In this document: positions 14,314 to 40,873 of the stretch, piece by piece
How the letters are laid out: every line of letters starts with the position of its first letter
Position numbering within the stretch: position 1 is the stretch's first letter
Assembly (NCBI GenBank): GCA_023264975.1
Contig: JAHFUS010000032.1
Location: 1-43,575, forward strand
Length of the DNA stretch: 43,575 bases
Direction: 5' to 3'
Source: Actinomycetes bacterium
Lineage (GTDB): Bacteria; Actinomycetota; Acidimicrobiia; Acidimicrobiales; GCA-2861595
Notes under the pieces: generated by a model
Seen by the model: the letters and a program-made list of their open reading frames with translations, nothing else
Database searches by the model: none
Told to the model about the DNA's origin: nothing
Program-made: the position numbers and the translations under genes

Positions 14314-15270
14314 GTGAAGACCACGACCCTACATATTGTCCTGAGTTGCACCAAGCGAAAGCGGATCGGTGACGCCTCCTACCCTCGCCTCAGGGAGGTC
14401 TTCACTGGCGATGTCGAGCAGAGAGCTGCGAGGTGGATCAGTCGGATCGACGGCGCCGACGCAAGCCGTCCCGCTCGCGATCTGTACGCCGGGGAGTACT
14501 GGCGGGCTGGGATGGGTTTGGCGGCGAGAGCAAGCCGGCTATGCCCATCGTCGACATGGGTGCTCTCCGCCGGCCTCGGGCTGATCAATCTGGACGACCA
14601 GATCCCTGCCTACGGCGCGACCTTCGCGAGCGGGCAGGAGGACTCCGTCGTCGTGAAGTCGGATGGCGCACCGGCTTCGGAGGTTCGTCGCCGCTGGTGG
14701 TCAGCCCTCGCCTCGTGGCAGGGCCCCGTCGGGCCCGGACGGCCGCGGCGGATCGCCGATCTCGCCGCCGACAGGGCGGCGAGCATCGTCGTCTGTGCGG
14801 GCCCTGACTACCTCGCGGCGATTAGGCCGGAACTCGTTGACACGTTGAATGTCCTCGGTGGTGAACGGCTCCTCTTGTTCGGATCTGGCGCACCCGAGAC
14901 TGGACTGGAGGGTGCGTGGGTGCGGGTACCGGGCCAACTCCGACTTCGCTTCGGTGGGTCCATGTCCTCGACCAGCGTTCGTGCCGCGTCGGCGGTCATC
15001 GACGAGATCGCGGAATCGGGCGTGCTCAGCGGTGATCAGGCACGGAGCCTGGTCGTTTCGTGGTGCGATGCCACGGCACCCCTACCTCGGCCCGAGCGAA
15101 AGAGGCTCTCGGACCTCGACGTCGCGCTGTGGATTGTCTCCGACTCGAAGGCCCACCCCGGCTCGGCCAACAAGTCAAGCTCCCTGAGGCGCTTTCGAGA
15201 CGACGGTCTCGCGTGCGAACAGGCGCGCTTCGGCCGTCTCTTCGACATAACTTCGACCAGGCGTCGATGA
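14314..15270 (+). CDS. dpdC: YaaA/DUF6884-like protein, candidate DpdC
   Basis: A 318-residue protein opens the dpd modification operon. Its N-terminal half has the YaaA/DUF6884-type pattern: HIVLSCTKRKR near the start, then ARDLYAGEYWRAG, then WVLSAGLGLINLDDQIPAYG. The C-terminal half has no recognised domain. In the Salmonella Montevideo cluster DpdC is needed to convert dPreQ0 in DNA to the amide dADG, and this is the only gene here that could fill that place, next to dpdB and dpdA. That identity is inferred from position and is not proven by a motif I know to be diagnostic of DpdC. The start is set at GTG 14314 just before the conserved strand; the open frame reaches back to 14257. Its TGA overlaps the next ATG (ATGA at 15267-15270), indicating translational coupling. 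Confidence 0.5.
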   Translation: MKTTTLHIVLSCTKRKRIGDASYPRLREVFTGDVEQRAARWISRIDGADASRPARDLYAGEYWRAGMGLAARASRLCPSSTWVLSAGLGLINLDDQIPAYGATFASGQEDSVVVKSDGAPASEVRRRWWSALASWQGPVGPGRPRRIADLAADRAASIVVCAGPDYLAAIRPELVDTLNVLGGERLLLFGSGAPETGLEGAWVRVPGQLRLRFGGSMSSTSVRAASAVIDEIAESGVLSGDQARSLVVSWCDATAPLPRPERKRLSDLDVALWIVSDSKAHPGSANKSSSLRRFRDDGLACEQARFGRLFDITSTRRR

Positions 15271-16382
15271 AGGTTCTCCGCCGTCGAGCCCTATGCATCG
15301 AGCAGACGAAGTCCGGGCCGCTTTATCTGTTGACGCTGCGGGCGGACGAGATCTTTGAGGTCGCCGAAGTTACACGGATCAACCGCTCTCGCTCGAACGA
15401 GTTGATCGGCTACCAACGCGCCGAGGTCCGCCAGCACGTCGGGGACATCCTTGAGTACCTCAACGGCGATGTGGTTCTTTTCCCAAACTCGTTGATCCTT
15501 GCACTAAGTCCGAATGTCCGGTTCCGGCGTAGTCGTGGTCCGGACAACCACGACGGACTGGCCCAAGCAGGCGTCCTTGAGATCCCGATCCCGTCGAGCG
15601 ATGGGCCTAAGGCGGCGTGGATTGTCGACGGGCAGCAGAGGGCGCTGGCGCTGTCGAGGGCCGAACGTCGTGATCTGCCGGTTCCGATCAGCGCCTTCGT
15701 CGCCGAGACGGTCGGCCAGCAACGCGACCAATTCCTCCGCATCAACAACACCAAGCCGCTCCCGCGCGGACTCGTCGCAGAGCTTCTGCCCGAGGTCTCA
15801 ATCCCCTTGCCGAGGGGCCTTGCAGCCAAACAGGTCCCCTCAGAGATCTGCGGCCTGCTCAACGATCAGTCCGACTCGCCGTTCCAGGGCCTCATCCGCC
15901 GGGCGTCCACACCGAGGGGCAGCGGGGCGGTCATCACCGACACCAGCGTCATCGATGTGCTCCGCGAGAGCATCTCATCGCCATCCGGATGCTTGTTTCC
16001 CTACCGGAACCTCGCGACGGGTGAGACCGACTTCGAGGCCATCTGGCGCATCGTCGTCACCTACTGGTCTGGCGTGCGCTCGGCGTTCCCCGAGGCATGG
16101 GGACGACCGCCGCAAGAGAGCCGCCTGATGCACGGGGTCGGGATCCGTGCGATGGGTCGTCTCATGGACAAGGTGATGGGCGCCGTTCACCCGACCGATC
16201 CCGACCTTGCCGGCCATGTTGAGCGAGCGATGGCCCGGATAGCGCCGGCGTGCCGCTGGACGAGCGGCACCTGGGACGAACTGTCGCTGCAGTGGAACGA
16301 CGTCGAGAACACCACCCGCAACCAGCGACTCCTCACGAACCTTCTTGTGCGGCTCTACTTCGGCGGGGGGGAGGCATCGTGA
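15267..16382 (+). CDS. dpdB: DGQHR-domain protein DpdB (first copy)
   Basis: A 371-residue member of the DGQHR/DndB-like family. The motif appears as IVDGQQR with D121 to R125, preceded by the conserved GYQRAEVRQHVGDILEYL segment and followed by NNTKPLPRGLVAELLP. DpdB works with DpdA to place preQ0 into DNA. In Salmonella both are needed, although DpdB is reported as dispensable in other clusters. Its exact reaction is not known to me; DGQHR proteins are often described as ParB-like nucleotide-binding proteins. The gene overlaps the preceding one by ATGA and the following dpdA by GTGA. It is clearly paralogous to the gene at 17637-18776: both share the NTKPLP, SPF-(Q/R)-G, S-R-L-x-HGVGI and LMD segments in the same order. 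Confidence 0.8.
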   Translation: MKVLRRRALCIEQTKSGPLYLLTLRADEIFEVAEVTRINRSRSNELIGYQRAEVRQHVGDILEYLNGDVVLFPNSLILALSPNVRFRRSRGPDNHDGLAQAGVLEIPIPSSDGPKAAWIVDGQQRALALSRAERRDLPVPISAFVAETVGQQRDQFLRINNTKPLPRGLVAELLPEVSIPLPRGLAAKQVPSEICGLLNDQSDSPFQGLIRRASTPRGSGAVITDTSVIDVLRESISSPSGCLFPYRNLATGETDFEAIWRIVVTYWSGVRSAFPEAWGRPPQESRLMHGVGIRAMGRLMDKVMGAVHPTDPDLAGHVERAMARIAPACRWTSGTWDELSLQWNDVENTTRNQRLLTNLLVRLYFGGGEAS

Positions 16383-17644
16383 GGTTCTTCTTTCCTGACA
16401 GTCAGGACCAGGTCGACCCTAGCTTTGATTTCAAGACTGAGCAACGGTCGATCTATCGGGTACGGCAAAGGGACGATCGCTACGCTCACGAGCTGATCCA
16501 ACCACCACCGTACGACGGGCTTCTCGTGTCCAAGCCGATTGTCGACGGGTTGCCGGGCTCCAGCGGGAAATACACCGGAGCCCAGCGCAACCGCCTTTAC
16601 CGAGAGGGCGCGCACCGCTTCTTCAGACTCGCGAATGGCTCCTCGACGCTCCCGGTGATGGGAGATTGCGGTGCCTTCACCTATGTACGTGAGCACGAAC
16701 CCCTCTACACGGTTGACGAGGTCATTGACTTCTACGACGGCTGCCAGTTCGACATCGGCATCGCCCCTGACCACGTCGTGTTCGGCTACGACGCCGCACT
16801 CGACAAGGCTCCGCCTCAGGACGTACCCGAGGACTGGCGGTTCCGCCAGCAACTGACGGTCTCACTTGCGAGCGACCTCCTCGCCGCTCACAGAAACCGC
16901 AAGTGCACGTTCGAACCCGTTGCCGTCGCACACGGATGGAGTCCGGAATCGTATGCGGTGTCGGTTCAGCAACTACAGGAGATCGGCTATCGGCGTATCG
17001 CCCTGGGCGGAATGGTGCCGTTGAAGACGCCGGACATCCTCGACAGCCTGAAGGCTGTTCGGCGGGTCTTGACCCCCGGCACCGAACTCCACCTGTTGGG
17101 TGTCACCCGCACCGCGCATGTCCAGGAGTTCGCCCGGTACGGCGTCACGAGCTTCGACAGCACGTCACCGTTCATGCAGGCATTCAAGGACGACAAGGAC
17201 AACTACTACGCCCTCGACCGCACCTACGTCGCCATTCGAGTTCCCCAAGTCGACGGCAACACGAAGCTGCGGTCGATGATCACCGCCGGAGCCGTTGACC
17301 AACAGAAGGCACGCCGACTCGAACGGACCTGTCTCGAGAGGCTGCGCAAGTTCGACAACGAGCGTTGTACCGCATCGGACGTGATCGACGCCGTGTGCAG
17401 CTACAGCGCGCTCCTTGGAGACACGAAGGATAGAAGCGCGGTCTACGCGGAGACACTTGAAGCCAGACCGTGGAGCTCCTGCACCTGCCAGGTCTGCGCC
17501 ACCATCGGCGTTGAGGTGATCATCTTCCGGGGGGCGGACCGCAACCGCCGCCGAGGTTTCCACAACCTCGCAGTGTTCGCGAGTCGGCTGAGTCGAGACC
17601 TCAATGCAGCGCCTGCTCTGAATACGGGAGCCACGCGTGCCTAG
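16379..17644 (+). CDS. dpdA: DpdA, TGT-like DNA guanine/preQ0 transglycosylase
   Basis: This is the key enzyme of 7-deazaguanine DNA modification. It exchanges guanine in DNA for preQ0 and is related to tRNA-guanine transglycosylase (TGT). The protein is 421 aa. D96 in MGDCGAFTYV corresponds to the TGT DSGGF base-binding aspartate. D260 in SFDSTSPFMQAF corresponds to the TGT nucleophile (FDxxxP). C368, C370, C373 (SCTCQVC) and H395 form the CxCxxC...H zinc site of the TGT fold. FDIGIAPDHV (125-131) is a further DpdA-like segment. GTG 16379 overlaps the dpdB stop; the open frame reaching back to 16250 runs within dpdB. The gene ends inside the start of the second dpdB-like gene (8-base overlap). 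All expected catalytic residues are present, so it should be active. Confidence 0.92.
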   Translation: MRFFFPDSQDQVDPSFDFKTEQRSIYRVRQRDDRYAHELIQPPPYDGLLVSKPIVDGLPGSSGKYTGAQRNRLYREGAHRFFRLANGSSTLPVMGDCGAFTYVREHEPLYTVDEVIDFYDGCQFDIGIAPDHVVFGYDAALDKAPPQDVPEDWRFRQQLTVSLASDLLAAHRNRKCTFEPVAVAHGWSPESYAVSVQQLQEIGYRRIALGGMVPLKTPDILDSLKAVRRVLTPGTELHLLGVTRTAHVQEFARYGVTSFDSTSPFMQAFKDDKDNYYALDRTYVAIRVPQVDGNTKLRSMITAGAVDQQKARRLERTCLERLRKFDNERCTASDVIDAVCSYSALLGDTKDRSAVYAETLEARPWSSCTCQVCATIGVEVIIFRGADRNRRRGFHNLAVFASRLSRDLNAAPALNTGATRA

Positions 17645-19571: not shown

Positions 19572-19580
19572 GGAGCGATC

Positions 19581-20687
19581 GTGTTTGAGTACCCAGCTGT
19601 CTTTAGTCGGCAGCGTGAGCACCCGGACGCGCCCCTGTTCGCTTGCTTTATCGCCCCAGTCGGCGATGTCCATCGCTGGACCACCATCGACCGATTGTCG
19701 ACGGTTGGCGGAGGTCATCAGCGCGTCAAGAACCCGTCGAAGGTCAAGGCGATCGTTCGTTTCCTCGAACTCGATGAGCGCAACACCATTCCAACAGCGT
19801 TGACCGTTGCTCTACGCCTTCCCGGCTTCGTGCCGCCGGAGCTCAACTCATGCACGTCCCTGCGGATCCCCGAGAGCGACCCCCCGGTCGGAATCGTGAT
19901 CGACGGCCAGCATCGTCTCTTCGGGATGGCCGACTACCGCGATGACCTACCAGTGAACGTGGTCGCGCTAATCAACCCGCTGGACGAGGAGATTGCATTC
20001 CAGTTCCTCGTCATCAATCAAAAGGTTACCAAGGTGCCGACCGATCACCTGACCCTGCTTACCTTGCAGTACTCCGAGAAGGCTCTCGACGAACGACTGC
20101 GGTCGGCGCGCATGGTGCTACGACGCCATGCAACCCTTGTCGGCGTTGTAGACTCATCGCCCGACTCGCCTTTCGTCCGCTCCGTGATCTGGCCCACGGA
20201 GGATGATGACGGAGTTGGGCGCACCCCGCTCGTTCTGCCGGCCGCGGTCGAGCAGGCTCTAGCCGCTATCGCGCAGAAGAATCTGCCCGACCTCCGCGAC
20301 GACGACGCTCTTCTCGAGTTCTTCTTCACGATGTGGTCCACCGTCAAGCAGAAGTGGCCCGACTTGTGGCATGCCGGCTCGTCCCTTCTCAGCAAGGTCG
20401 GCGTCGTCACGCTGACGACCTTCATTATCGAGGACTTGGCTCCCTTGGCTGATCGGGACATGGTCAACCTTGCGGAGCCAGAGGACGCAGCGAAGGCGGT
20501 GAGTGACATCCTCGACAACCTGGCGCCGGACTTCTGGAGGACCGAGTGGACCGCGAAGAGCTTGGATACGTCCGGGGGTCGCCAGATGGTCGTCGACTCA
20601 CTCATCCAGATTCGTCGCAACGTTCGGCGGGGCGAGTCGTGGCACACAGACGTGTCACTCGTGGCAACCGGCGAGCCGAATGCCTAG
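19581..20687 (+). CDS. Third DGQHR/DndB-like protein, divergent from the two DpdB copies
   Basis: A 368-residue protein with the motif IDGQHR at D108-R112, followed by FLVINQKVTKVPTDHLTLL, the INQK pattern common in DndB-like DGQHR proteins. It lacks the NTKPLP and HGVGI blocks that link the two DpdB copies, so it is a separate branch and not a recent duplicate. GTG 19581 has AGGAG at 19571-19575, five bases upstream, and follows the HNH stop by nine bases. The pairing of an HNH nuclease with a DGQHR partner in one transcription unit suggests that they act together. Its target and activity are unknown. It is the last gene before the 70-base gap leading to the preQ0 genes. Confidence 0.75.
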   Translation: MFEYPAVFSRQREHPDAPLFACFIAPVGDVHRWTTIDRLSTVGGGHQRVKNPSKVKAIVRFLELDERNTIPTALTVALRLPGFVPPELNSCTSLRIPESDPPVGIVIDGQHRLFGMADYRDDLPVNVVALINPLDEEIAFQFLVINQKVTKVPTDHLTLLTLQYSEKALDERLRSARMVLRRHATLVGVVDSSPDSPFVRSVIWPTEDDDGVGRTPLVLPAAVEQALAAIAQKNLPDLRDDDALLEFFFTMWSTVKQKWPDLWHAGSSLLSKVGVVTLTTFIIEDLAPLADRDMVNLAEPEDAAKAVSDILDNLAPDFWRTEWTAKSLDTSGGRQMVVDSLIQIRRNVRRGESWHTDVSLVATGEPNA

Positions 20688-20757: not shown

Positions 20758-20970
20758 ATGCCGAAGTTGAACTCGTCAAGCAAGAGAGTGTCCACGGCAG
20801 TCCGGCTTCCCAAGGAGCTCCACGCCGAGCTCCAGCGACAGGCCTATGAGCGCGATGTCTCGGTGAACTTCCTCGTGACTCGAGCAGTCGACCATTACCT
20901 GCGAGAGTTGGGTCCGGCGGAGCCGCTTACTCTCCACCGCCGCGATCAGGCAGAAGGAGCGAGCGCATGA
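20758..20970 (+). CDS. Ribbon-helix-helix (Arc/CopG-type) small DNA-binding protein
   Basis: A 70-residue protein with the RHH pattern [20 protein letters not shown], then [20 protein letters not shown]: a short strand with alternating residues followed by two helices. Such proteins bind DNA as dimers and act as repressors or antitoxins. Its stop overlaps the queC start (ATGA at 20967-20970), so it is translated with the preQ0 genes. No toxin gene is adjacent, which favours a regulator. The dyad at 20692-20714 is a plausible site for autoregulation and control of precursor supply. Start ATG 20758 is chosen because the longer frame upstream runs inside the previous gene. Confidence 0.7.
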
Positions 20971-21668
20971 CGAAACGAGCGGTCGTGCTGCTCAGCGGGG
21001 GCCTCGACTCCGCGACTGTGGCCGCCATCGCCCAGCGGGACGGCTTCGACACCTACGCGCTTAGCTTTGATTACGGGCAGCGGCACTCCGCCGAACTCGA
21101 TGCGGCGCGCGCGGTGGCTGTGGTTCGGGGAGTGCAGGACCACAAGATCGTTCCAATCGACCTTCGCGCCTTCGGCGGATCGGCGCTGACGGACGACATC
21201 GCAGTGCCCAAGGACAGGGACGTCGTGGAAATGAGCGATGGCATTCCGGTGACCTACGTCCCAGCGCGAAACACAATCTTCCTGTCCTTCGCGCTCGCCT
21301 GGGCCGAGGTGCTTGGCTCCTCAGACATCTTCATCGGAGTGAATGCGCTCGACTACTCCGGCTACCCCGACTGCAGGCCCGAGTATATCGATGCCTTCCA
21401 AACCATGGCTCGGCTGGCGACGAAGGCGGGCGTCGAAGGCGCGACTCTCCGCATCCACGCGCCGCTGGTTGCACTCACGAAAGCAGAGATCATCAGCCTT
21501 GGAACAGTGCTGGGCGTCGATTACGCACACACTGTCAGCTGTTACGACCCTAACGCTTCAGGCGCAGCGTGCGCACACTGCGACTCGTGCCTCCTGCGCC
21601 GGAGGGGTTTTGCCGAGGCTGGTCTCGCCGATCCGACCCGCTACCAGGCTACGTCTGGCGCAGCATGA
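20967..21668 (+). CDS. queC: QueC, 7-cyano-7-deazaguanine (preQ0) synthase
   Basis: This enzyme makes preQ0 from 7-carboxy-7-deazaguanine with ammonia and ATP, the last step of preQ0 synthesis. The protein is 233 aa. The PP-loop SGGLDS is at residues 10-15, and the four zinc cysteines C192, C202, C205 and C208 are in SCYDPN and ACAHCDSCL. It is a normal length for QueC and all key residues are present. It overlaps the RHH gene upstream and queE downstream, both by ATGA. In this context the preQ0 is most likely destined for DNA through DpdA, although it could also feed tRNA queuosine or archaeosine-like pathways if those exist elsewhere. Confidence 0.95.
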
Positions 21669-31232: not shown

Positions 31233-34200
31233 CCGCCGATCTCCTTCGCCAATTCCGCGAACCTCGAAGTCGCTTCGAGCACCTTTGTAGCCACTGACTC
31301 CATGTCAGTCGCCCCGGTCGCCGCCTGGCGTTGCAATAGGTCTGTCTCCACTCCGGCGATAGCGGACGCGGCTCTCGTCGCGAAGGCGTGGACGACTGCG
31401 GCGTCGCCGGTCGCCGTACCAGCGAGTGCCAGGAGCTTCTCAGGCATTGAACGGTCCTTCGCAACGAGCTCTGCGGCCTGGTAAAACGAGCGTAGGACTC
31501 GGTCGGGATGCCGCAAGGCAAGGCTCGACAGGGTATCGATCGCCGTCGCGTCTCTCAGCCGTCCCGCGTTGTGTGCCACTCGGAGAACGTCGAGTGTTTT
31601 GGCGGTTTGGTCCGGCCAGGGCCGCGAACGGTCAACGTGCTCGATTGCCTCAGTGACCCGCGTCGTGAGGACGTTCCATTCCTCCTCGACAGCAGGTGCG
31701 ACGCTTCTCATTAGCGAGGCGATTGCAGGCTCGGGGCTGTCGAGCCGCCACTCTGTTATGAATTCCTCGATGATGGGAAGCAAGCGGTCCGCCTGGACCA
31801 CATGAACACGGCCCGTCGTTCCCCGTGACTCACCAAATTCCGCCTCGATCGTTGAACGAAGCTTGGGCATCAGGGCTCTGGCTTGCGTGGCAAGGCGGGT
31901 CCAGCGGTCCAAGCGAGGAAGTGCCTCAGCCGCCGATTCTATCGACGGTCGGAACATCGCATCGAGCACGTCACGCGCGCGGGCTTCGGTGGCGAGGCCG
32001 GCGATGGCGGTCGCGACGACCAGGCCCTCAACGGCCGAGACGACGGATTCAGCCGGCGGACCAGTGAGTCGCTCGACGACCTGGGCGGTCCAGGCCTCGA
32101 TGCTCGAGGCGAGTAGCCGACGGTAGTAGCTCGCCTGCGGGTAGTCGTCGGCATCCAACTCAGAGGCGAGGATCAATGCCTGGAGTGCTGCTGCGTTGGT
32201 CTCCGTGCGTGGAATGACGACCATCGCGGCTTCGAGGCTCTGCTGAGTAACCGTGCCTGCGATACCGATGTGCGGCTCGGCGCGGAATCGCCGTGAGGTG
32301 AACTCGGGACCAATATGAACCGCTGCGGGCCCGACCTCGAGGTTCCTGAGAATGGTCTTGTGGACGAGGTTGCGAAGGTCGTTCGTTGCTCTGGCCGACA
32401 GGTCGCGGCTCCGGCCTGCCCACTGCGTTAGTTCGCCAAAGTGCGACCCCCACCTCGTCGGCAATCGTCCTTCGAGAGTGGTCGGCCGCTCGGGTCGATC
32501 TGGATCCCGATCGAGCCTCGGTTCGGTATCTCGGCCGCCTCCGAGGTCTCGGAGCGACTCAAGATTGAGCTCTCCTAGGTCGATTCCGAAGGCCGCGAGT
32601 ATCGCTGGCTTGATACTGATGTGCGAGCCTTCCTCCGACCAGTATCGCAGCGTGTTGATGACACGCACGTGGTCGGCGGGACGGAGAGTTCGGAGCTGCG
32701 CTGCAAGAAGTGGAGGCAGCGGCTCGGTATCACTGTCGAAGGCGGTCAATGTCCCGTCGGAGGGAAAGGCCGACTGGTCCATGTCGGCGGCCCCGTGAAG
32801 AAGGAATCTATTGATGAGCTCTCGCACGACCTCGCGTGGGTCGAAGCGATCGACGGAGAGCGCTTCTACGAAGCGCCCTGCTGCCACGGCATTGAGGGGG
32901 TACAGGCCATAGCCCTCTGCGCTCGTACCAAAGGCGTCGTGGCACACGTCCCGGTGGGGGCATGGCGTGCATGCGTTGGCGAGCCAGTGAGCGTTGCCTC
33001 GTTCAGTCCACGACTTCTCCACGTCGTCCGGGGGAAGCCGGCTCGAGTTCAGGTACCTGCCTAGGAATGAGAGAGCCTCATCTCGGTCGACACCTCCTTC
33101 GCCGTACCGAGCGTCGAGCCAGTAGGCGTCATCGCAACGGGTTCGGACGGTATCGAGGTCATCGAAGTGTCCCTCCGTGACGGCGAAGATCACCCGTAGG
33201 TTGCACATGTGTCCGTCGGCTGATCGGGCAGGTTCGACGATTGCATCTAGAAACTCGCGTTCGACGCCATGTAGGACCGTGAGATCCTCGATGAAGAGGA
33301 CGAGCTCTTTGCCCTCGACTAGGAGCGCCCTTCGGACATCGCGAAATATCTCCACCAGGTCGACGTTTCCCGAAACACTCACTCGCTTCACTGCGAGCGG
33401 GAGGGCTTGGTTAATGAGCGACACGGCGGCGCTTCGGAGGTCGGGAATCGTCGCAAGTTGACCAAGCAGGGTGCGGGCACCGCTGCTGGTGTCCCCAATC
33501 TCTTCGAACGTGCGCGGGAGGTCTGAGTCGAGAAAGTTGGTGGCGTCATCGTCCAGACCGTCACCTTCCCGCCTCCCGCGAACCGCGAGGCCGACAAGGC
33601 GATGGACTACCGCTCCTGGCTCCACGAGCCTGCGTCGGACTACCGGATCCCTCAGCACGTCGGGAAGCTGCCGCTCGAGCTTCCGACGGAGTTGCAACTC
33701 GTGCTGGGTGGGTTGTGCCGACGGGTTCACAGGGAGGTCATCCGCATGGGCGACCAGGATCGCTAGTTCGTCGAGGAGTCGTTCGGCGAGGACGTCGTCG
33801 TTCTCTGAGTGAGCTGGGGCCGTCGTAAGGGCCTCGCGTGCCTCGTCGATCTTCTTGCCCGCCAGCCCGCGAATGACGATCTCGACCGCCCGACGGATGC
33901 CGGTGCGGTTCTTAGGCAGGTACCGCGACTCCCAGTTGACGACCCCCTCCGTTTGGTCCCTCACCCAGCGAACGAGGTGCGACTTACCCGTACCGGATCC
34001 ACCAACGATTGGGATGAACAGGTAGCCGTCAGGCCGGAGGGCTCCTTTCAGGGCCTCAACGACTTCCTGTTCCTTGACCCACCGACCATCAGAACGCTGG
34101 TCGAGCCGCCGGCGTCGAAGCCTGAGTGGATGGTGGATCGCCTGGAAATGGCCATCGTCGAGGCTGGCGGCGTCGCGCGGCGTCGTGGCTAGCACCGCTT

Positions 34201-34240
34201 CGTCACGCCAGCAGACGCATTCGCAGAAGTCGGGCATCAC
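31229..34240 (-). CDS. dpdH: DpdH, P-loop ATPase
   Basis: A 1003-residue ATPase. Walker A is GGSGTGKS (80-87). A Walker B-like strand LVLFIEDLTVLHG lies near residue 310, and an arginine-rich segment (VIFAVTEGHFDDLDTVRTRC) follows at AAA-like spacing. A cysteine cluster in NACTPCPHRDVCHDAFG, followed by GLYPLNAVA, is a zinc-binding or iron-sulfur-type element seen in defence ATPases. The C-terminal 400 residues are helical. It probably powers assembly or DNA loading of the restriction complex. The symbol comes from domain type and gene order. It overlaps dpdG and dpdI by four bases each. Confidence 0.75.
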   Translation of the reverse strand: MMPDFCECVCWRDEAVLATTPRDAASLDDGHFQAIHHPLRLRRRRLDQRSDGRWVKEQEVVEALKGALRPDGYLFIPIVGGSGTGKSHLVRWVRDQTEGVVNWESRYLPKNRTGIRRAVEIVIRGLAGKKIDEAREALTTAPAHSENDDVLAERLLDELAILVAHADDLPVNPSAQPTQHELQLRRKLERQLPDVLRDPVVRRRLVEPGAVVHRLVGLAVRGRREGDGLDDDATNFLDSDLPRTFEEIGDTSSGARTLLGQLATIPDLRSAAVSLINQALPLAVKRVSVSGNVDLVEIFRDVRRALLVEGKELVLFIEDLTVLHGVEREFLDAIVEPARSADGHMCNLRVIFAVTEGHFDDLDTVRTRCDDAYWLDARYGEGGVDRDEALSFLGRYLNSSRLPPDDVEKSWTERGNAHWLANACTPCPHRDVCHDAFGTSAEGYGLYPLNAVAAGRFVEALSVDRFDPREVVRELINRFLLHGAADMDQSAFPSDGTLTAFDSDTEPLPPLLAAQLRTLRPADHVRVINTLRYWSEEGSHISIKPAILAAFGIDLGELNLESLRDLGGGRDTEPRLDRDPDRPERPTTLEGRLPTRWGSHFGELTQWAGRSRDLSARATNDLRNLVHKTILRNLEVGPAAVHIGPEFTSRRFRAEPHIGIAGTVTQQSLEAAMVVIPRTETNAAALQALILASELDADDYPQASYYRRLLASSIEAWTAQVVERLTGPPAESVVSAVEGLVVATAIAGLATEARARDVLDAMFRPSIESAAEALPRLDRWTRLATQARALMPKLRSTIEAEFGESRGTTGRVHVVQADRLLPIIEEFITEWRLDSPEPAIASLMRSVAPAVEEEWNVLTTRVTEAIEHVDRSRPWPDQTAKTLDVLRVAHNAGRLRDATAIDTLSSLALRHPDRVLRSFYQAAELVAKDRSMPEKLLALAGTATGDAAVVHAFATRAASAIAGVETDLLQRQAATGATDMESVATKVLEATSRFAELAKEIGG

Positions 34241-35154
34241 TTGGCCTGGCAGCGGACGTGAGAAAAGGTCGATCCATCGGCTCGCGTGATCCGAGGAGCG
34301 TCCGCACGATCATCAAACACGATCTTTCCCTCGGAGCGGAGCCGTTCGAGCGCGTCTGTGAGGGGTGCTGACAGGCGACGCTGCTCGGGCGGGGGCCGTC
34401 CCCAGTTGCTCTCGACGAACTCTCTGTAGCGACCTGTATCAAGCACGGGCACGGCATCGCCAAGCTTGTCGACCAACTCCCGGGCACTCAGCTCGGGCGA
34501 CTTCCCGACAATCGCTGGCAGCGCGTCTCGCACGGCGGGTGTGGGATCCGGTACGAGGTTGCCTTTCGGGTCCACCCACGCGAACCCCAACGAGCATGCC
34601 CAGAAGCGGAAGGCGCGCCAACGATTGTCGTTGCCAATCGGCCACCCCCCGCCATCGTCCTCCTCGTCCGAACGCCCTCGCGGGGCGGGCTGACGCGCGC
34701 CGAAGTCCGCTGTCTGAAGCTCCTTCGCCGATCTTGCACCGCCCTCCATGGCCACTGGAGCATCGTTCGGCGCGAAAGTCAGGTACCACGCGAGTGCGTT
34801 CGTGAGATCTCTCGCGCCGGCCTGACTCCCCCACTCGCCAACATTCACCGAGGGTTCGAGGACGGCCTGTCGGAGCAGCGCAACCGTAGAGCCTTGGCCG
34901 CCTCGAACCGGGCGGACGGCCGCTTCGGAAAGCCGGACTTCGTCTCCGATCCTTTCGACCAGTCCCAGATCAATCGCAGCCCGCAGACTGTCGCGAACGT
35001 CGCGCTGATGACCGCCGTCCGGCGACAATCCGCTGGGCGAGAGCACAGCAACGAGCCCGTTGACGTCATCCTTTCTGCCTCTTTGCCCGGCGAGATGTCT
35101 GAGCACGATCAAGATCACGCTCGGTCGGTTGGCAGCAGTGTTCAACAGTGCCAC
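34237..35154 (-). CDS. dpdG: DpdG-like protein
   Basis: A 305-residue protein between dpdF and dpdH. The N-terminal 90 residues look like a winged-helix domain (PSVILIVLRHLAGQ, then RDVRDSLRAAIDLGLVERIG). A central segment has two tryptophan-rich stretches (WYLTFAPNDA, FRFWACSLGFAWVD). A second wHTH-like region is possible at 215-300. No enzymatic motif is visible. In Salmonella dpdG is one of the genes required for restriction; here the symbol is given on position and size. The start at 35154 lies 12 bases after the dpdF stop. The stop overlaps the dpdH ATG. Confidence 0.65.
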   Translation of the reverse strand: MALLNTAANRPSVILIVLRHLAGQRGRKDDVNGLVAVLSPSGLSPDGGHQRDVRDSLRAAIDLGLVERIGDEVRLSEAAVRPVRGGQGSTVALLRQAVLEPSVNVGEWGSQAGARDLTNALAWYLTFAPNDAPVAMEGGARSAKELQTADFGARQPAPRGRSDEEDDGGGWPIGNDNRWRAFRFWACSLGFAWVDPKGNLVPDPTPAVRDALPAIVGKSPELSARELVDKLGDAVPVLDTGRYREFVESNWGRPPPEQRRLSAPLTDALERLRSEGKIVFDDRADAPRITRADGSTFSHVRCQAK

Positions 35155-35166: not shown

Positions 35167-37731
35167 CTACAGCAGTCTCTCGACATCGCCCAGCGAGTAC
35201 GCGCCGTCCTGTTCGGCGAGCGTCGTTGTCCCCGGTCCGACCAGCAGGTCGGCGGGCCCACAGAGCACGAAGAGTGGCGAGCGGCTACTTCCTTCAATCC
35301 AATCAGCTGGATCACAAGTCGACGGAAGGAAGATCAACGTCCGGACACCGACGGCCGTAACGGGATCGAACGAGTTGAGCGCGTCGACCATGACCGCGTG
35401 CGCCAGAGTCTCGGGGGCGGGAAGTGCGTCGGTCACGGCTGGACCGAGGCCTTCGGGCGCTACGACCAGTTGAATGTCCCCAGCGACCATCAGTGCCCGA
35501 AGGACGACGCGAAGCCGCCGAACACGGATGAGCGAATCAGGGTCGACACAAACGATGACCCGAGACCCATACGCACCGGCAACGGCGAGACGATCGAGCG
35601 GCGCTGGACGTGTGCCGCCGATCGTGATGGCCGCAGGGCCAGGTGAAGGAGAGGCCCATCGCCGGCGGCCATTGCGTCGGCACCAACCGCAGCCTCCGCA
35701 CGACGCGAGACATTCCGTTCGAAACTCGGCGGGTACCGAAATGCGATAGCTGTCAGCGATCAGGACTCCAGTGCACCCGTCACCTCGTAGCGCACGTCGG
35801 AGGCTGATGAGACCCAGTCGAGCTCGCGCCACCATGGTCTTGCGCAGCGGTTCGACGTCGTCGCGCCAGAAGTGATCGCCCATGTGGTCTCCACGAAGCA
35901 GTCGGACCGTGAGCCAACCCCGATCGCTGGTACGGATCTCGTCGTCGCCGGCGACGTCGGCGAATGAAAAGTCCCATTGCACAGCACCGGCGCGTGCGAG
36001 AAGGCTGATTGTGAGGAGGTTCCAGTGCTCGTTGTACTCACTGTTTGATGCGACACCAGGACGGGTCGCTGTGACCGGTAGTCGGTGGAGGCCATCGGTC
36101 GTGAGTTGTGCTGCGCCGATCATCGCCGACCATCGCTCTCGCGCCAGCACGCCTGTGAGATACCTCGGCGAAGCGAGGCCTTCAGCCACAGCGTCGTCCT
36201 CGCTGGTTGCGACGACCACCGACGCTGCGGCGCGACCGTCGCGTCCACCTCGACCAACCTCCTGGTAGTAGCGGTCCAGGTTCTCGGGGATGCAAGCGTG
36301 AATGACCGCTCGGACGTCCGGAATGTCGATTCCGAGTCCAAACGCGGACGTTGCAACGACGAGGTCGTAGTCGGCGGGAGAGTCCGGTTCGTCTCGAAGG
36401 CCGCGTAGCACGCGCTCGCGATGAGGTGTCGAAGAGTCTCCATCGACAGTCGCCAGACGGCGGAAGCCTGCAGTCTTAAGGAGTGCGGCGATGCCGGAGG
36501 GCGTCAGGGTGCCGGGTCGAGCACTCGCCTCCTGGCGAAGGGTCGTGTAGACGATCGCCGGCCGTGGTAGGTGCCGGATCGCCTCCAAAAGCCTTCCGTT
36601 CCGGAGCGCCGTGTCCAACGATGTCGATTGCCAGAACGAAGGCTCGGCACGGACAACTGGGGCGGCAATCTGGAGAAACGGGCCCGGCTGTCCGAAGAGA
36701 GCCTTGAGCAGAAGGATGGTGTCCTGGGTGAGAGTCGCACTGGCGAGGATCGTCTTGAACGCCGGGTGCCCCTGTTCGGTCGCCTGTCGGAGAAGGTGCG
36801 TTCGGAGGCCCGCGAGGCTGTGAAACTGCGGGCGGAAGGCGTCTCCCCAGGACCCAACGACGTGAACTTCGTCTATGGCGAGGAGTGCGAGTCGCCCGCC
36901 TGCAGCGACTTCTGACATCGGGCGCGCCAGCGAGGAGACGAGCGCTTCCGGATTCGTGAAGAGAACTCGCTGATCCCCGCTTCGCAGCCGACGCCGGAAC
37001 TCGGTCTTGGCCGATGGGGACAGATCGCCGTAATAGGCGCTGGATGGTGAGTTCGGATGCTGAACGCGATACCGCCGCTCGTGGTCTAGGGCGAGCGCGA
37101 CAGTCGGAACCACAACGACCGAAGTCATCCCGAGGGGTGCCGTTTCCGACGCCGAGAGCATGGCGAGGGTCTTGCCTGCGCCGGTCGGCAGGTTGACGAT
37201 GAGGGTTGCGCCGGCGGGCAGGACCATCGCGCTTCGAACGGCGGCGCGCTGGCCGGGCGTCTTGTAGCGCCTGATCGCAGTATCGATTAACGGGAGGAAG
37301 GGATCCCCAGGGACGGATTCGTCACTGCGACACAGCACCTCGCTGTAGACGTCGGCGTCGACACCTTCGTTGCTGGCATCCGCGATCCAGCCCGGCCGCC
37401 AAGGCTCCGCGCCCAGACGGATAGCGGGGTGGCCCAGGGCTTGTGGCAGGAGGCCATAGCTCGGCCAGTCGAAGGTTGCTGGGAACGTGGACGAGAAGGG
37501 AACCTCCAGCCACGACCGTGCTAGCGCGCCGTGGTCGCCGCCCGGACATCGACGTCGACTCTCGTCGTTTGATCGAAGCACTTGTCGCAAGAGCACAGCG
37601 ACGTCCGCCGCGCCCGAGTGTGGACTGAGGTGAGGTTCTGAGAGCGCGGCAACGAGACGGGTCGACGTTTGCGGCTGTCGGCCCGACACCCACGCATTGA
37701 GCGCCTCTTGAGCGTCGTGCAGGTCGAGCAT
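35167..37731 (-). CDS. dpdF: DpdF, RecQ-like DEAD/DEAH helicase
   Basis: An 854-residue superfamily 2 helicase. Walker A lies at about 181-188 (LPTGAGKT), the DEAH box is DEVH (287-290), and SATLTQDT follows. In the second RecA domain are SAFGLGIDIPDVRAVIHACI and YYQEVGRGGRDG, a close match to RecQ motifs V and VI. A cysteine group CLASCGGCGWCRR near residue 600 is probably a zinc site. The open frame extends to 37998, but that upstream part overlaps dpdE and is Arg/Ser-rich. ATG 37731, five bases after the dpdE stop codon begins, opens MLDLHDAQEALNAW and is preferred. It probably unwinds or moves along DNA in the restriction complex. Confidence 0.85.
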   Translation of the reverse strand: MLDLHDAQEALNAWVSGRQPQTSTRLVAALSEPHLSPHSGAADVAVLLRQVLRSNDESRRRCPGGDHGALARSWLEVPFSSTFPATFDWPSYGLLPQALGHPAIRLGAEPWRPGWIADASNEGVDADVYSEVLCRSDESVPGDPFLPLIDTAIRRYKTPGQRAAVRSAMVLPAGATLIVNLPTGAGKTLAMLSASETAPLGMTSVVVVPTVALALDHERRYRVQHPNSPSSAYYGDLSPSAKTEFRRRLRSGDQRVLFTNPEALVSSLARPMSEVAAGGRLALLAIDEVHVVGSWGDAFRPQFHSLAGLRTHLLRQATEQGHPAFKTILASATLTQDTILLLKALFGQPGPFLQIAAPVVRAEPSFWQSTSLDTALRNGRLLEAIRHLPRPAIVYTTLRQEASARPGTLTPSGIAALLKTAGFRRLATVDGDSSTPHRERVLRGLRDEPDSPADYDLVVATSAFGLGIDIPDVRAVIHACIPENLDRYYQEVGRGGRDGRAAASVVVATSEDDAVAEGLASPRYLTGVLARERWSAMIGAAQLTTDGLHRLPVTATRPGVASNSEYNEHWNLLTISLLARAGAVQWDFSFADVAGDDEIRTSDRGWLTVRLLRGDHMGDHFWRDDVEPLRKTMVARARLGLISLRRALRGDGCTGVLIADSYRISVPAEFRTECLASCGGCGWCRRNGRRRWASPSPGPAAITIGGTRPAPLDRLAVAGAYGSRVIVCVDPDSLIRVRRLRVVLRALMVAGDIQLVVAPEGLGPAVTDALPAPETLAHAVMVDALNSFDPVTAVGVRTLIFLPSTCDPADWIEGSSRSPLFVLCGPADLLVGPGTTTLAEQDGAYSLGDVERLL

Positions 37732-37735: not shown

Positions 37736-40700
37736 CTAGTCGAGCCTTGCGGGATCGCCAACGAGGAGCACGCCGCACCCCAATACGTCGATCTGAGTGT
37801 CGAAGCGATCGGGCAGACATTCGACGATCCGCCGCAGACCGAGTCCCGAATCGTGGAGACCAGCGAGCTCTCGAGATCGCTCGCGGTCGATACGACGCTC
37901 GATTCGAGCCCGCAGCGCGCTCGCACCATATTGGGGCCGCTCGGTGATTGTCGGGCGCCGAGCAAGTACGGCGCGCGCCGACTCCAACGCCGACGCACAC
38001 GTATCTGGCCAGTCGATGTGTGCGACCAGGCGATCGAAGAGTTCCGGTCGGGAACTGAGATTGCGATCCCCTCGCTGCTTAGCGTACGGGTGTCGAAGCG
38101 CGGGGTTCGTCACCTCCGTCCCGTCGCTGGTCATCACGACTGTCTCAACGCTCGGTGGCAGCAACTCGCGGAGGAGTTGACTTATCCACGATCCCAGTCC
38201 TAAGGAGTCAACATCGGCGAGGAACCTCGCTGCGGGTGCGGCTGAGATGAGGAAGTCCGTACGGAGCACGACCGCCGGAGGCCACTGCCCTCGTGCCGGG
38301 CGGAACATTGCAAAGGCCACACCCCGGTCGCTATGTCGTAAGTGTGCAGCGACGGCGTCGACCATCGAGTGACCTGCGCGCAGTATCGGGATCGCCCGAG
38401 CCACGGCAGCCGTGCGCTCCACTGCGAGAGGCGTCCCCATAAATGGTGCAAGCGCGACTTCGAGGTCGAACGGGACCTGCGGCCGCGGCTTACGATCGAG
38501 ACGCACGACGCCTGGGGAGATCCGCGGCACATTCGCGCCCACTCCGTCGAACCAGGACACGAGCGCGTCGGTGAGCGTCGACCTACGGTCGCTCGCCAGG
38601 AGGACGTTGTCCGAGTCCTGGGCTCCGGGTGCGCTGGACCGATCGATCGAGTCGAGCGCGTCGTGGGCGACGATTCGCGTCTGCTCGACGGCAAGGGTGG
38701 AGATCTGCGTGTCGATGGCATCAGCGAATACATGCGCGCCGTTCGAGAGGGCGGCGGTCTGCACAGATCGCTCCGTGTCGCTGAGCACGTACTGCAATGA
38801 CGACACAGACCGCGAGAACACGCCGCAGCCGTCGGCCAGAAACTCGAACCATCCGTTCGCGTACACCTGGTCGCCGAAGGTGACGATGGCGGATGGGATC
38901 GGGCCAAGGTTCGGCGGCGCGTGTCGGTCGCAACGCCCGATTCGCTGCTCAACGCGGAAGGACTCCCACGGCAGGTCGACGTGGATAAGGAGATCGGCAA
39001 TTTGGAGGTTTAGGCCTTCCTCGGCTCCGGCATCGCAGGCCAGGACGGAGCACGCTCCATCCTCGATCCAGCGCTGGACTTGTCCGCTGTTCTCGGCGCG
39101 CGAGTGTGTCAATAGATGGGTGGCGATCCTGTCCGAGCCCCAACGTCGGGAGATCTCTTCGGCGATCGCTTCAGCGGACTCGGTAAAGGCCGATGTGATC
39201 ACGGTCCGAGCCACGCCGCGGGCGACCGTCACTCGCGAAAGGACCTCGCCCAACTCCTGAAGAACCACAGCATGTGCGTCGTAGATGTCGTGGATGAGTT
39301 GCCGCCAACCAGCGAGGGCTTCGGGTTCGACGACCGATTGAACGAGCGTCCACTCTGTGGACCACCGCTCTTCGCGAGCGTCCACGAGCGGCAGAAGGGC
39401 ATGCGGTAGCGAACCACAGCGCTCCGCGACCTCGCAAAACATCTGTAGGGCGGTGGCCTGATCGAGCGCTCCTTGTTCGGTCGCCGCCGTCAGGTGAAGT
39501 CGTAGGCTATCGAGAAGCTGAGAGCGGAGTCGGTCCGCTGGATCGCTCACCTCGAGCGTGAATTGAATCGCCCGTTTGCGACCGCGTACAGCGAACGTGG
39601 CTCCTACTTCGGAGGTACGACGCGTTCGCAACAGCCGATGGTGGAGCCGATACGTCTCCGAGAGGTGCTCCCTGACTCTTGCGACAGCCGTTGGTCTGAC
39701 GAGGTCGTCGGCGGCAGTTGCTTCAGCTAGGAGCGACGACAGGGTCGGATCATCGGGATACAGGATCGCAAGCTCGCCCGCATAGAGCGAAAGATCGAAC
39801 TCATCAATGTCAGGGGTGAGGGCTTGGTAGGTGAGTGCGAGATGGTCCCGAAGCTCGACTCGGCGCACGAACTCCTCAAGCTGGTCCGGTCGGTAGTTCT
39901 CAGGATCGAGGAGGTGGAGCAGGTCGAGGAACCCGGCCTCGTTTGACCGGACGGGTGTCGCGGAGATGAGAAGGAGGGCTTCGGCTTCGTGAGAGAGTTC
40001 CACGATCCGTTGCCGCGCTGTCGGGGAGAGAGCGCCAGTCCGGGTCGCATGGTGAGCCTCGTCCACGACGAGGAGATCGACGGCTTGGGCGGGCCATGTC
40101 GCTTCGTCGGTATGCGACCTGATGCGCAGCCAAGCCTTAGCGTAACGATCAGTACGGAATCGGTCCAAGAGCTCGGCTGCCCACTGTTCCCTTAGGTGGT
40201 CCGGGGCGAGCACAAGTATCCGACCATTGGGACGCCGCGCGAGAAACTGCCAAATCAAGGCTCCGGCTTCGATCGTCTTGCCTAAGCCCACCTCGTCGGC
40301 CAGCAGGTATCGCTGGACCGGATCGGCCGCCACGCGACGCACAACGGCGAGCTGGTGTCGGTGGAGTTCGACCGATCCGAGCTCGAGGCCATCCACGCCC
40401 GTCGCCGCGGCATGCTGACGCGACCACTCACCTAGAAGGTCGAGCCTCGCCTCATAGACCACCGGGCTGTCTCCGCCCACGGCTTCAAGCACCTCGAAGG
40501 GGTTCGTGATCGGAAGATGCCACCTCACATCGAACGACTCCCCTGCGAGAATCGCCCCCTCGCCATTGGGAAACGCGATGAGGTATTTGTCTCGATCCTG
40601 CGGATGTGCGCCGTCGATCCGTCCGAGGTGCCAGCGGCGCCCATCGTTCACATACGCGCGGGTGTGCGCTGGCAGCGTGATCGGTGTGACCTCATCTGGG

Positions 40701-40873
40701 TGGTGGTCGTGGTCGACGTAGGGGGACTTGCCGGGCGCCTGGAAGTAGCGAACACGGGCTAGATCAGTGCGAATCTCAATGAGCCGCCCGATGCCCAGTG
40801 CCGAGGTGCGCACGAAGTTGCCGAGATCGTTGAAGTCGATATCCGGTCGTCCCTTCGCTCGGTGTGACTCCAT
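37736..40873 (-). CDS. dpdE: DpdE, SNF2-family helicase, first gene of the restriction operon
   Basis: A 1045-residue SNF2-type ATPase. An N-terminal beta-rich region of about 130 residues (GIGRLIEI, VRYFQAPGKS) is followed by LADEVGLGKT (191-200), VLAPDHLREQW, and the DEAH box at 271-274 in LLVVDEAHH. Then come LLISATPVRS and, in the second domain, VDLPWESFRVEQRIGRCDRH. This is the arrangement of RapA-like SNF2 proteins. DpdE is among the genes reported as essential for restriction of unmodified DNA. On the minus strand GGAGG (40881-40877) lies three bases before ATG 40873, a strong but tightly spaced binding site. The operon promoter should lie in the region to the right. Confidence 0.87.
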   Translation of the reverse strand: MESHRAKGRPDIDFNDLGNFVRTSALGIGRLIEIRTDLARVRYFQAPGKSPYVDHDHHPDEVTPITLPAHTRAYVNDGRRWHLGRIDGAHPQDRDKYLIAFPNGEGAILAGESFDVRWHLPITNPFEVLEAVGGDSPVVYEARLDLLGEWSRQHAAATGVDGLELGSVELHRHQLAVVRRVAADPVQRYLLADEVGLGKTIEAGALIWQFLARRPNGRILVLAPDHLREQWAAELLDRFRTDRYAKAWLRIRSHTDEATWPAQAVDLLVVDEAHHATRTGALSPTARQRIVELSHEAEALLLISATPVRSNEAGFLDLLHLLDPENYRPDQLEEFVRRVELRDHLALTYQALTPDIDEFDLSLYAGELAILYPDDPTLSSLLAEATAADDLVRPTAVARVREHLSETYRLHHRLLRTRRTSEVGATFAVRGRKRAIQFTLEVSDPADRLRSQLLDSLRLHLTAATEQGALDQATALQMFCEVAERCGSLPHALLPLVDAREERWSTEWTLVQSVVEPEALAGWRQLIHDIYDAHAVVLQELGEVLSRVTVARGVARTVITSAFTESAEAIAEEISRRWGSDRIATHLLTHSRAENSGQVQRWIEDGACSVLACDAGAEEGLNLQIADLLIHVDLPWESFRVEQRIGRCDRHAPPNLGPIPSAIVTFGDQVYANGWFEFLADGCGVFSRSVSSLQYVLSDTERSVQTAALSNGAHVFADAIDTQISTLAVEQTRIVAHDALDSIDRSSAPGAQDSDNVLLASDRRSTLTDALVSWFDGVGANVPRISPGVVRLDRKPRPQVPFDLEVALAPFMGTPLAVERTAAVARAIPILRAGHSMVDAVAAHLRHSDRGVAFAMFRPARGQWPPAVVLRTDFLISAAPAARFLADVDSLGLGSWISQLLRELLPPSVETVVMTSDGTEVTNPALRHPYAKQRGDRNLSSRPELFDRLVAHIDWPDTCASALESARAVLARRPTITERPQYGASALRARIERRIDRERSRELAGLHDSGLGLRRIVECLPDRFDTQIDVLGCGVLLVGDPARLD

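What the first reader, a model, noticed from the sequence alone, without database searches (positions are those of the whole stretch)
14314..40873. Complete dpd (7-deazaguanine in DNA) island with its own preQ0 pathway
Directly visible are DpdA with all TGT-type catalytic and zinc residues, DGQHR proteins, QueC/QueE/QueD/FolE2 with intact active sites, and a minus-strand operon with SNF2, RecQ-like and DUF1998-type helicases, a P-loop ATPase and a PLD-like protein in the order E-F-G-H-I-J-K-D. The island would make preQ0 from GTP, insert it into DNA and restrict DNA lacking it. It is flanked on both sides by mobile-backbone genes, so it is probably carried by a plasmid or integrative element.
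Basis: partly seen in the sequence, partly recalled or inferred. Interest (0 to 1): 0.85.

Follow-up and report, generated by a model that had tools for sequence, protein, structure and literature searches.

The report
Complete Dpd island plus HNH–DGQHR module
This stretch holds a full, ordinary set of genes that mark a bacterium's DNA with a modified guanine and attack unmarked DNA, and inside it sits an unusual extra two-gene unit, a nuclease with a partner protein, that also turns up beside a chemically different DNA-marking system.

Summary
Window 14314-40873 is an intact Dpd (7-deazapurine-in-DNA) island: dpdC-B-A-B, queC-E-D-folE2 and a minus-strand E-F-G-H-I-J-K-D operon. NCBIfam cut-offs are passed by A, B (twice), D, E, F, G, H, K, QueC, QueD, QueE and FolE2; C and J rest on PADLOC, I on position and 38% identity to one neighbour. 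DpdA is a DNA-guanine transglycosylase: 572 bits against 17-25 for three TGT models, solved relative 7ui4. This system, its paired DpdB genes and private preQ0 pathway are known.

The closest relative lacks the pair at that site. In 53 dpd loci, HNH ORFs flank 5 of 7 DGQHR-motif ORFs not beside dpdA (the other two have no Pfam match) and 0 of 97 beside it. The pair also lies beside dndBCDE on a Pseudomonas plasmid. I propose a two-gene, modification-gated effector working like GmrSD or DndI but built from other families. No assay was possible; my searches found no description of this pairing.

The parts
14314..15270 (+). dpdC (dPreQ0 to dADG step, by homology)
   Evidence: PADLOC DpdC 198.9 bits, profile 3-292 of 299; weak DUF6884 below cut-off
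15267..16382 (+). dpdB copy 1
   Evidence: NCBIfam DpdB 406 bits, cut-off 300
16379..17644 (+). dpdA, DNA-guanine transglycosylase
   Evidence: NCBIfam DpdA 572 bits, cut-off 200; 7ui4 422 bits
17637..18776 (+). dpdB copy 2
   Evidence: NCBIfam DpdB 489 bits
18780..19571 (+). HNH nuclease gene of the accessory pair; C132, C135, H153, N167, C172, C175 and N176 invariant in the four aligned relatives
   Evidence: Pfam HNH and HNH_5 over cut-off; alignment A3
19581..20687 (+). third DGQHR (DndB-like) protein, 'B3', partner of the HNH gene
   Evidence: TIGR03187 83 bits (cut-off 58.85) but DpdB only 64 (300) and DGQHR_dnd_1 23 (450); own branch in trees
20758..20970 (+). small ribbon-helix-helix (HicB-like) protein
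   Evidence: Pfam HicB 26.1 bits, cut-off 21
20967..21668 (+). queC
   Evidence: TIGR00364 198 bits
21665..22300 (+). queE, Cx14CxxC type
   Evidence: TIGR04508 333 bits
22300..22659 (+). queD
   Evidence: TIGR03367 110.5 bits
22659..23483 (+). folE2
   Evidence: NF010200 246 bits
23484..25631 (-). dpdD
   Evidence: NF041061 359 bits, cut-off 300
25628..26155 (-). dpdK, PLD-like
   Evidence: NF041068 189 bits, cut-off 100; Pfam PLDc_2
26152..30498 (-). dpdJ helicase
   Evidence: PADLOC DpdJ 1448 bits; Pfam DEAD, Helicase_C
30495..31232 (-). gene in the dpdI slot
   Evidence: no DpdI model match; 38% identical to the same-slot gene of G031
31229..34240 (-). dpdH
   Evidence: NF041065 598 bits, cut-off 450
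34237..35154 (-). dpdG
   Evidence: NF041064 177 bits, cut-off 80
35167..37731 (-). dpdF, RecQ-like helicase
   Evidence: NF041063 656 bits, cut-off 550
37736..40873 (-). dpdE, SNF2 helicase
   Evidence: NF041062 728 bits, cut-off 500

Best explanation
A complete, horizontally acquired Dpd modification-restriction island that has taken up a two-gene accessory effector. By homology: FolE2, QueD, QueE and QueC make preQ0 from GTP; DpdA with the two DpdB proteins exchanges guanine for preQ0 in DNA; DpdC hydrates it to dADG; DpdD-K attack DNA without the mark. Inferred here: the pair at 18780-20687 is a split sensor-nuclease. The DGQHR protein (DndB-like, intact DGQHR motif) recognises DNA modification state or modification sites and holds back or licenses the adjacent HNH nuclease, so unmarked DNA is nicked and self DNA spared. 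It would be a second line beside DpdD-K, able to pair with either Dpd or Dnd marking. Shown: gene identities, intact motifs, pairing counts, linkage to Dpd loci and to one Dnd locus. Inferred: physical interaction, nuclease activity, sensing of the mark, direction of gating.
For: Dpd identity. Pair conserved as a unit: Nocardioides L042 (B3 63%, HNH 54-55%), G031 (58%, 51%), G1115, P. aeruginosa plasmid beside dndBCDE, A. vitis plasmid dpd locus. Position differs: between dpdB and queC (window), next to folE2 (Nocardioides), after dpdD (G031), before dpdC (G1115). Absence at that site in the closest relative L011: about 130 bp where the window has about 2.04 kb. In 53 dpd loci, HNH-motif ORFs flank 5 of 7 DGQHR-motif ORFs not beside dpdA and 0 of 97 beside it (Fisher p 2.3e-7); the two unpaired ones have no Pfam match. 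In 17 plasmid dpd loci, 2 of 2 extra ORFs found by my profile have an HNH partner (one split by an IS5) against 0 of 19 beside dpdA. DGQHR genes opened outside dpd and dnd loci (three plasmids, one phage) have no HNH-motif ORF in the 8.8-12.9 kb seen (0 of 4), so the pairing is not a general trait of DGQHR genes. Six B3 proteins form one branch apart from DpdB1, DpdB2 and DndB (95/85; 93/92 with five rows). DGQQR+HNH proteins DndI and GmrSD are described as modification-linked nucleases (passages of PMC11662687, PMC4619093).
Against: No biochemical or phage data. One Dnd-linked case only: no match in 398 genomes of the phylum of G398 (a record titled Gammaproteobacteria) at E 1e-25 (nothing rang, so no positive control), and among 72,556 plasmids only itself and the A. 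vitis dpd plasmid. The pair is rare: HNH profile in 2 of 396 phylum genomes, B3 in 3 of 397 order genomes. In G1115 the HNH gene reads in two frames and the locus looks decayed, so it cannot stand as a sole effector there. DGQHR proteins of two cyanobacterial dpd plasmids (L111, L112) lie 0.9-2.2 kb from dpdA, carry the DGQHR motif, have no HNH-motif ORF in the region and were missed by my profile. So neither the motif nor distance from dpdA predicts an HNH partner by itself. Both structure models failed (pLDDT 44.7 and 52.5). B3 found no solved relative.
Confidence: 0.55

Rival explanations
1. An ordinary Dpd island only; the HNH-DGQHR pair is a passenger (homing-type nuclease or unrelated defence gene) that happens to lie in a defence-rich mobile region.
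For: Flanks hold other mobile genes, including an HNH_repeat homing-type ORF at 8639-10069; contig C138 with related genes carries a large SNF2-helicase/methylase protein; the pair is rare.
Against: HNH-motif ORFs are scarce in dpd loci (6 in 53 loci, one of them without an HNH match in Pfam) and 5 of 6 abut a DGQHR gene that is not beside dpdA. All three B3 carriers in the order sample are dpd loci, and the pair holds four different positions counting the Nocardioides locus.
Confidence: 0.25
2. The pair is a GmrSD-like Type IV enzyme that cuts phage DNA carrying foreign modifications, complementing Dpd (which handles unmodified DNA).
For: GmrSD is a DGQQR+HNH enzyme, sometimes two proteins, that cuts glucosylated phage DNA (passages of PMC4619093); phages carry their own deazaguanine DNA (start of the abstract of PMC6884629 in the listing).
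Against: B3 and HNH match PF14072 and PF01844/PF14279, not the GmrSD domains DUF262 and DUF1524; association with marking systems suggests the self mark matters.
Confidence: 0.2
3. B3 is a third DpdB or DndB-like regulator tuning modification, and the HNH protein is a neighbour of no related function.
For: DndB is described as an ATP-dependent negative regulator (passages of PMC10853773); two DpdB copies already flank dpdA; DGQHR proteins without an HNH neighbour exist.
Against: B3 fails the DpdB and dnd DGQHR models and sits apart from them in trees; its HNH partner stays next to it over large distances and beside another chemistry.
Confidence: 0.12
4. The island modifies tRNA rather than DNA (DpdA is a misread TGT).
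For: Weak TGT Pfam score of 24.8 bits, below the cut-off of 26.3.
Against: DpdA 572 bits against 19.9 and 17 for two TGT models; 7ui4 DNA-guanine transglycosylase 422 bits; a separate true TGT at C133 with 458 bits.
Confidence: 0.01

Closest known systems
Dpd (7-deazapurine in DNA) modification-restriction system, dpdA-dpdK
   Same: All core genes, same order of the restriction operon; DpdA, DpdB and six of the D-K proteins pass NCBIfam equivalog cut-offs
   Different: Extra HNH-DGQHR pair between dpdB and queC; dpdI slot filled by a gene that no DpdI model recognises
GmrSD Type IV restriction enzyme
   Same: ParB-like DGQQR domain plus HNH nuclease, tied to DNA modification; two-protein forms exist
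   Different: GmrSD uses DUF262 and DUF1524; here PF14072 DGQHR and PF01844/PF14279 HNH in two genes beside Dpd or Dnd genes
DndI and SspE (phosphorothioate-sensing nickases)
   Same: DGQQR-type NTPase coupled to HNH nuclease, linked to a DNA-marking system
   Different: Those are single fused chains with DUF262 and DUF1524; here two separate genes of other families, mostly at 7-deazaguanine loci
ParB-CTPase-fold proteins fused to HNH domains (PF01844), survey of PMC12704722
   Same: ParB-fold NTPase joined with a PF01844-type HNH nuclease
   Different: Fusions of unstated system in the passages I saw; here a DndB-type DGQHR protein and an HNH protein in adjacent genes at marking loci. Whether the two overlap was not tested
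DpdB / DndB / TIGR04172 dnd-linked DGQHR proteins
   Same: DGQHR (TIGR03187) domain
   Different: B3 scores far below the DpdB and TIGR04172 cut-offs and forms its own branch

Membership tests
Dpd system | DpdA scores to DpdA models, not to tRNA TGT | tested here: met
   572 bits (cut-off 200) against 19.9 and 17 and Pfam TGT 24.8, below cut-off; 7ui4
Dpd system | DpdB next to DpdA | tested here: met
   two copies, 406 and 489 bits, cut-off 300
Dpd system | DpdC present | tested here: met
   PADLOC DpdC 199 bits; no NCBIfam hit at E 0.01
Dpd system | Restriction genes dpdD-H, J, K | tested here: met
   DpdJ by PADLOC only
Dpd system | dpdI | tested here: inconclusive
   gene in the slot, no model match; 38% to the G031 slot gene
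Dpd system | dPreQ0 or dADG in host DNA | not testable with these tools
   needs LC-MS
Dpd system | Restriction of unmarked DNA | not testable with these tools
   needs transformation or phage assays
DpdB (for B3, 19581-20687) | NF041060 over cut-off 300 | tested here: not met
   64 bits; four B3 relatives 51-76 bits
dnd-linked DGQHR protein 1 (for B3) | TIGR04172 over cut-off 450 | tested here: not met
   23 bits
GmrSD / SspE / DndI (for the pair) | DUF262 plus DUF1524 domains | tested here: not met
   only DndB (below cut-off) for B3 and HNH, HNH_5, HNH_4 for the nuclease in Pfam
GmrSD / SspE / DndI (for the pair) | modification-dependent NTPase and nuclease activity | not testable with these tools
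   needs purified proteins
Plasmid or integrative element | replication, relaxase or attachment sites | tested here: inconclusive
   recombinases and related genes on C138 seen; no end repeats by a 12-mer test; relaxase and replication models not searched for as such

The most novel reading that the evidence does not exclude
HNH-DGQHR is a portable two-gene restriction unit that plugs into chemically unrelated DNA-marking systems (7-deazaguanine base marks and phosphorothioate backbone marks), its DGQHR subunit reading the state of marked sites rather than one specific chemistry. It would be a third architecture of the DGQxR+HNH sensor-nuclease beside GmrSD and SspE/DndI, and a missing effector for dnd loci without DndFGH.
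Probability: 0.3. Interest if true: 0.75.

Novelty: new variant of a known kind. Interest (0 to 1): 0.5.

Why it matters
How Dpd restricts DNA is still unclear; among DpdD-K only the PLD-like DpdK looks like a nuclease by itself (my reading of the families, not tested). A compact HNH nuclease with its own DpdB-like partner, found inside dpd loci and beside a dnd locus, offers a small, testable effector and a direct way to ask whether these proteins read a base mark, a backbone mark or the modification complex itself. It also suggests that effectors are exchanged between different DNA-marking systems.

Tried and rejected
tRNA modification instead of DNA: rejected on DpdA scores. Two flanking DpdB genes as a novelty: rejected; 97 DGQHR-motif ORFs lie beside dpdA in 53 loci, about two each, the same on six alphaproteobacterial plasmids, and extra dpdB copies (n=801) are reported in PMC11888242 (passages). 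Private preQ0 pathway as a novelty: rejected; about 27% of islands have one (same passages). Island supplying preQ0 to a host lacking it: rejected; the host has its own QueC, QueF, QueA and TGT (the QueF hit spans one TGA). HNH-B3 replacing DpdD-K: not supported generally, since window, G031 and G396 have both; G1115 is not among the four genomes with DpdH (taken to be the same order sample as, 397 genomes each), but its HNH is frame-broken. Viral contigs: no relatives. Phages: only 24-26% partial DGQHR matches in 5 records, one opened. E. coli DNA search: none. AlphaFold models of HNH and B3: too poor to search. Terminal repeats: none by short-word tests.

Rows set aside or not opened: L034 (213 aa) and L054 (337 aa) DGQHR-motif ORFs without a Pfam match, and an L037 HNH-motif ORF without an HNH match. 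Loci L019 and L057 look alike and may not be independent. In the plasmid test the neighbour distance was relaxed to 1,300 nt (300 nt in the 53 loci); at 300 nt only Bradyrhizobium counts. The HNH profile there was trained partly on that plasmid; the motif scan was not. Of the 10 plasmid records with B3-like matches, 9 were opened over the calls; the second Novosphingobium record (H14) was not. L038's DGQHR protein is not in either tree.
Full report
1. What is there. Between 14314 and 40873 lies a compact gene set with mostly overlapping or abutting reading frames, all open. Plus strand: dpdC, dpdB1, dpdA, dpdB2, HNH, B3, a ribbon-helix-helix gene, queC, queE, queD, folE2. Minus strand, in order of transcription: dpdE, F, G, H, I-slot, J, K, D. 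PADLOC names DpdC, DpdB, DpdA, DpdB, DpdD, K, J, H, G, F and E. NCBIfam equivalog cut-offs are passed by DpdA, both DpdB, DpdG, QueC, FolE2, DpdD, DpdK, DpdH, DpdF, DpdE, QueE and QueD. DpdC and DpdJ rest on PADLOC. The DpdI-slot gene has no model match; its counterpart in genome G031 is 38% identical, and several other loci carry a diverged ORF of similar size there (phmmer with the window's gene found none of them).

2. DpdA. It scores 572 bits to the DpdA model, 19.9 and 17 to two NCBIfam TGT models and 24.8 to Pfam TGT, below its cut-off. It scores 422 bits over residues 8-428 to PDB 7ui4, named 'DNA-guanine transglycosylase'. The catalytic and zinc motifs align (their roles are recalled from TGT biochemistry). 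The genome has a separate true TGT (458 bits) next to QueA, its own QueC and a QueF (that hit spans one TGA). So the island's preQ0 pathway is additional to the host's.

3. Origin. G+C is 64.1% in the island against 70.3% and 71.5% in the flanks. The sampled same-genus genome G805 and four same-family genomes have neither B3 nor DpdH at the thresholds used. Left of the island an 11.4-kb stretch with recombinase genes interrupts a SNF2-type helicase gene; on contigs C138 and C34 the homologous sequence runs on without it. C138 also has an XseA-like gene, a phage integrase and a 2,429-aa SNF2-helicase/methylase protein. This supports a mobile setting. Plasmid or integrative element cannot be decided. 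Dpd occurs on plasmids elsewhere: 17 of 72,556 plasmid records hold a DpdA match at E 1e-20.

4. At 18780-19571 lies a 263-residue protein with an intact HNH motif and zinc ribbon. Nine bases on, at 19581-20687, lies a 368-residue DGQHR protein, B3. B3 passes the generic DGQHR domain model (83 bits, cut-off 58.85) but falls far short of DpdB (64, cut-off 300) and of the dnd-linked DGQHR model (23, cut-off 450). The closest dpd relative found, L011 (best segments 79% identical in DpdA and 78% in DpdB2; a 3.6-kb contig), has about 130 bp between the end of its dpdB2 match and the ribbon-helix-helix gene, where the window has about 2.04 kb holding the pair. So the pair behaves as an insertable unit.

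5. Recurrence. The HNH-B3 pair occurs in Nocardioides sp. PD653-B2 (L042/G396) next to folE2; in G031, same order as the window's genome, at the end of a single-strand run queC-E-D-folE2-C-B-A-B-E-F-G-H-I-J-K-D-HNH-B3; and in G1115 next to dpdC-A-B. In the phylum sample the HNH profile rings in 2 of 396 genomes and DpdA in the same 2. One of the two is the window's own genome, so the independent information is one genome. In the order sample B3 rings in 3 of 397 (G000, G031, G1115) and DpdH in 4 of 397 (G000, G031, G848, G952). I take the two samples to be the same genomes; the lists are cut. So 2 of 4 DpdH genomes have B3, and the third B3 genome has a dpd locus without DpdH. In G1115 the HNH gene reads in two frames and only a piece of dpdE remains, so that locus may be decaying.

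6. Pairing counts. In 53 genome loci with DpdA I listed 104 ORFs with a DGQHR-type motif. Of 97 within 250 nt of DpdA, none has a same-strand HNH-motif ORF within 300 nt. Of 7 others, 5 do (L038, L039, L042, L046, L051; Fisher p 2.3e-7). The HNH proteins of L038, L039, L046 and L051 each match a Pfam HNH model over cut-off; that of L042 is aligned with the window's. The two unpaired ORFs have no Pfam match. Loci are related by descent, so the p-value is optimistic, and flanks end at 10 kb. Plasmid replicate: all 17 dpd plasmid regions were fetched; 21 DGQHR-family ORFs by my profile, 0 of 19 beside dpdA with HNH, 2 of 2 others with HNH (A. vitis with an IS5 between the two genes, Bradyrhizobium adjacent). 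Against this, annotated DGQHR/DndB proteins on two cyanobacterial plasmids escaped my profile; they carry the DGQHR motif, stand away from dpdA and have no HNH-motif ORF in the region. Outside marking loci, four DGQHR matches that I opened (Rhizobium, Novosphingobium and Leptospira plasmids, phage Mx4) have no HNH-motif ORF nearby; two of them sit by radical-SAM genes.

7. Link to another chemistry. On P. aeruginosa plasmid ppae01 the pair (HNH 26-27%, B3 36-37% identical to the window's) lies directly beside dndBCDE, with recombinase genes upstream and no dndF, G or H annotated in the 59 kb seen (the PLSDB gene table is incomplete, and the rest of the plasmid and the chromosome were not seen). 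It is the only such case found. In a tree of 39 DGQHR proteins the six B3 proteins, including this one, form one branch (95/85) separate from DpdB1, DpdB2 and DndB. The HNH-paired proteins of L039, L046 and L075 are next to it (100/100 for the nine), while L051's sits elsewhere. A smaller tree gives 93/92. Several rows have long branches, so their exact places are unsure.

8. How it most likely works. By homology with the described system (Thiaville 2016 and Yuan 2018 recalled, not read; passages in PMC11888242 and PMC12839542), FolE2-QueD-QueE-QueC make preQ0, DpdA and DpdB insert it, DpdC converts it to dADG and DpdD-K restrict unmarked DNA. For the pair, precedent comes from GmrSD (ParB-like DGQQR domain plus HNH; passages of PMC4619093) and DndI (DGQQR plus HNH; ATPase stimulated by the phosphorothioate mark, releasing the nickase from self DNA; passages of PMC11662687). 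B3 and its HNH partner belong by Pfam to other families, so the pair is not a member of those groups, but it may work like them. The step from resemblance to function is inference. The B3 profile found no solved relative, the HNH profile mainly HNH nucleases such as 4h9d and Cas9/IscB-type proteins over the HNH core, and both structure models were too poor to use.

9. Known or new. The Dpd system, duplicate DpdB and island-borne preQ0 genes are known. HNH (PF01844) endonucleases were noted in a dpd island survey, among neighbours of islands without the restriction operon (passages of PMC11888242); HNH proteins of SAD(SRA) type near dnd genes in PMC10853773 (passages); and fusions of the ParB-CTPase fold with PF01844 HNH domains in PMC12704722 (passages). 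I found no account of a DGQHR-HNH gene pair at dpd loci or shared with dnd loci in these searches. I read passages of eight papers and opened only 3 of the 10 papers holding HNH, 7-deazaguanine and dpd together. The library lacks most subscription papers.

Noticed in passing
window 365-11800: An 11.4-kb stretch with tyrosine-recombinase ORFs (476-1984 Pfam integrase; 1971-3983 without a Pfam match) interrupts a SNF2-type helicase gene just before its QREGR..RQGN motif (motif VI by recall); homologous sequence on C138 and C34 of the same genome runs on without it. No end repeats by short-word test.
   Followed up: partly
C138 of the same genome (L065, L066): A contig with related genes (SNF2 helicase, XseA-like gene, phage integrase) carries a 2,429-aa SNF2-helicase/methylase protein, to my reading another defence gene (DISARM- or type ISP-like, recalled).
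   Followed up: partly
window 8639-10069 (-): ORF with a homing-endonuclease-associated HNH_repeat match (64.5 bits) inside the inserted stretch.
   Followed up: no
window 7302-8153 (-): GGDEF diguanylate-cyclase domain gene within the inserted mobile stretch, unusual cargo.
   Followed up: no
window 41657-42250 and 42524-43575 (+): DUF5710 protein and an exonuclease VII large-subunit-like gene to the right of the island; the latter is 37% identical to one on C138.
   Followed up: partly
L056 (Vibrio sp. UCD-FRSSP16_30): Locus appears to hold two divergent DpdA-DpdB pairs (35% and 43% identical to the window's DpdA).
   Followed up: no
L110 and L113 (cyanobacterial plasmids): dpdA loci with a second tRNA-guanine-transglycosylase gene between two DEAD/DEAH helicase genes, unlike canonical Dpd.
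   Followed up: no
L122 and L123 (Rhizobium and Novosphingobium plasmids): DGQHR-domain genes next to radical-SAM and ATP-binding protein genes, a different and unexplained neighbourhood.
   Followed up: no
L038, L051: About 500-aa DGQxR proteins with an HNH gene downstream; L051's sits elsewhere in the DGQHR tree, so HNH pairing may have arisen more than once.
   Followed up: partly
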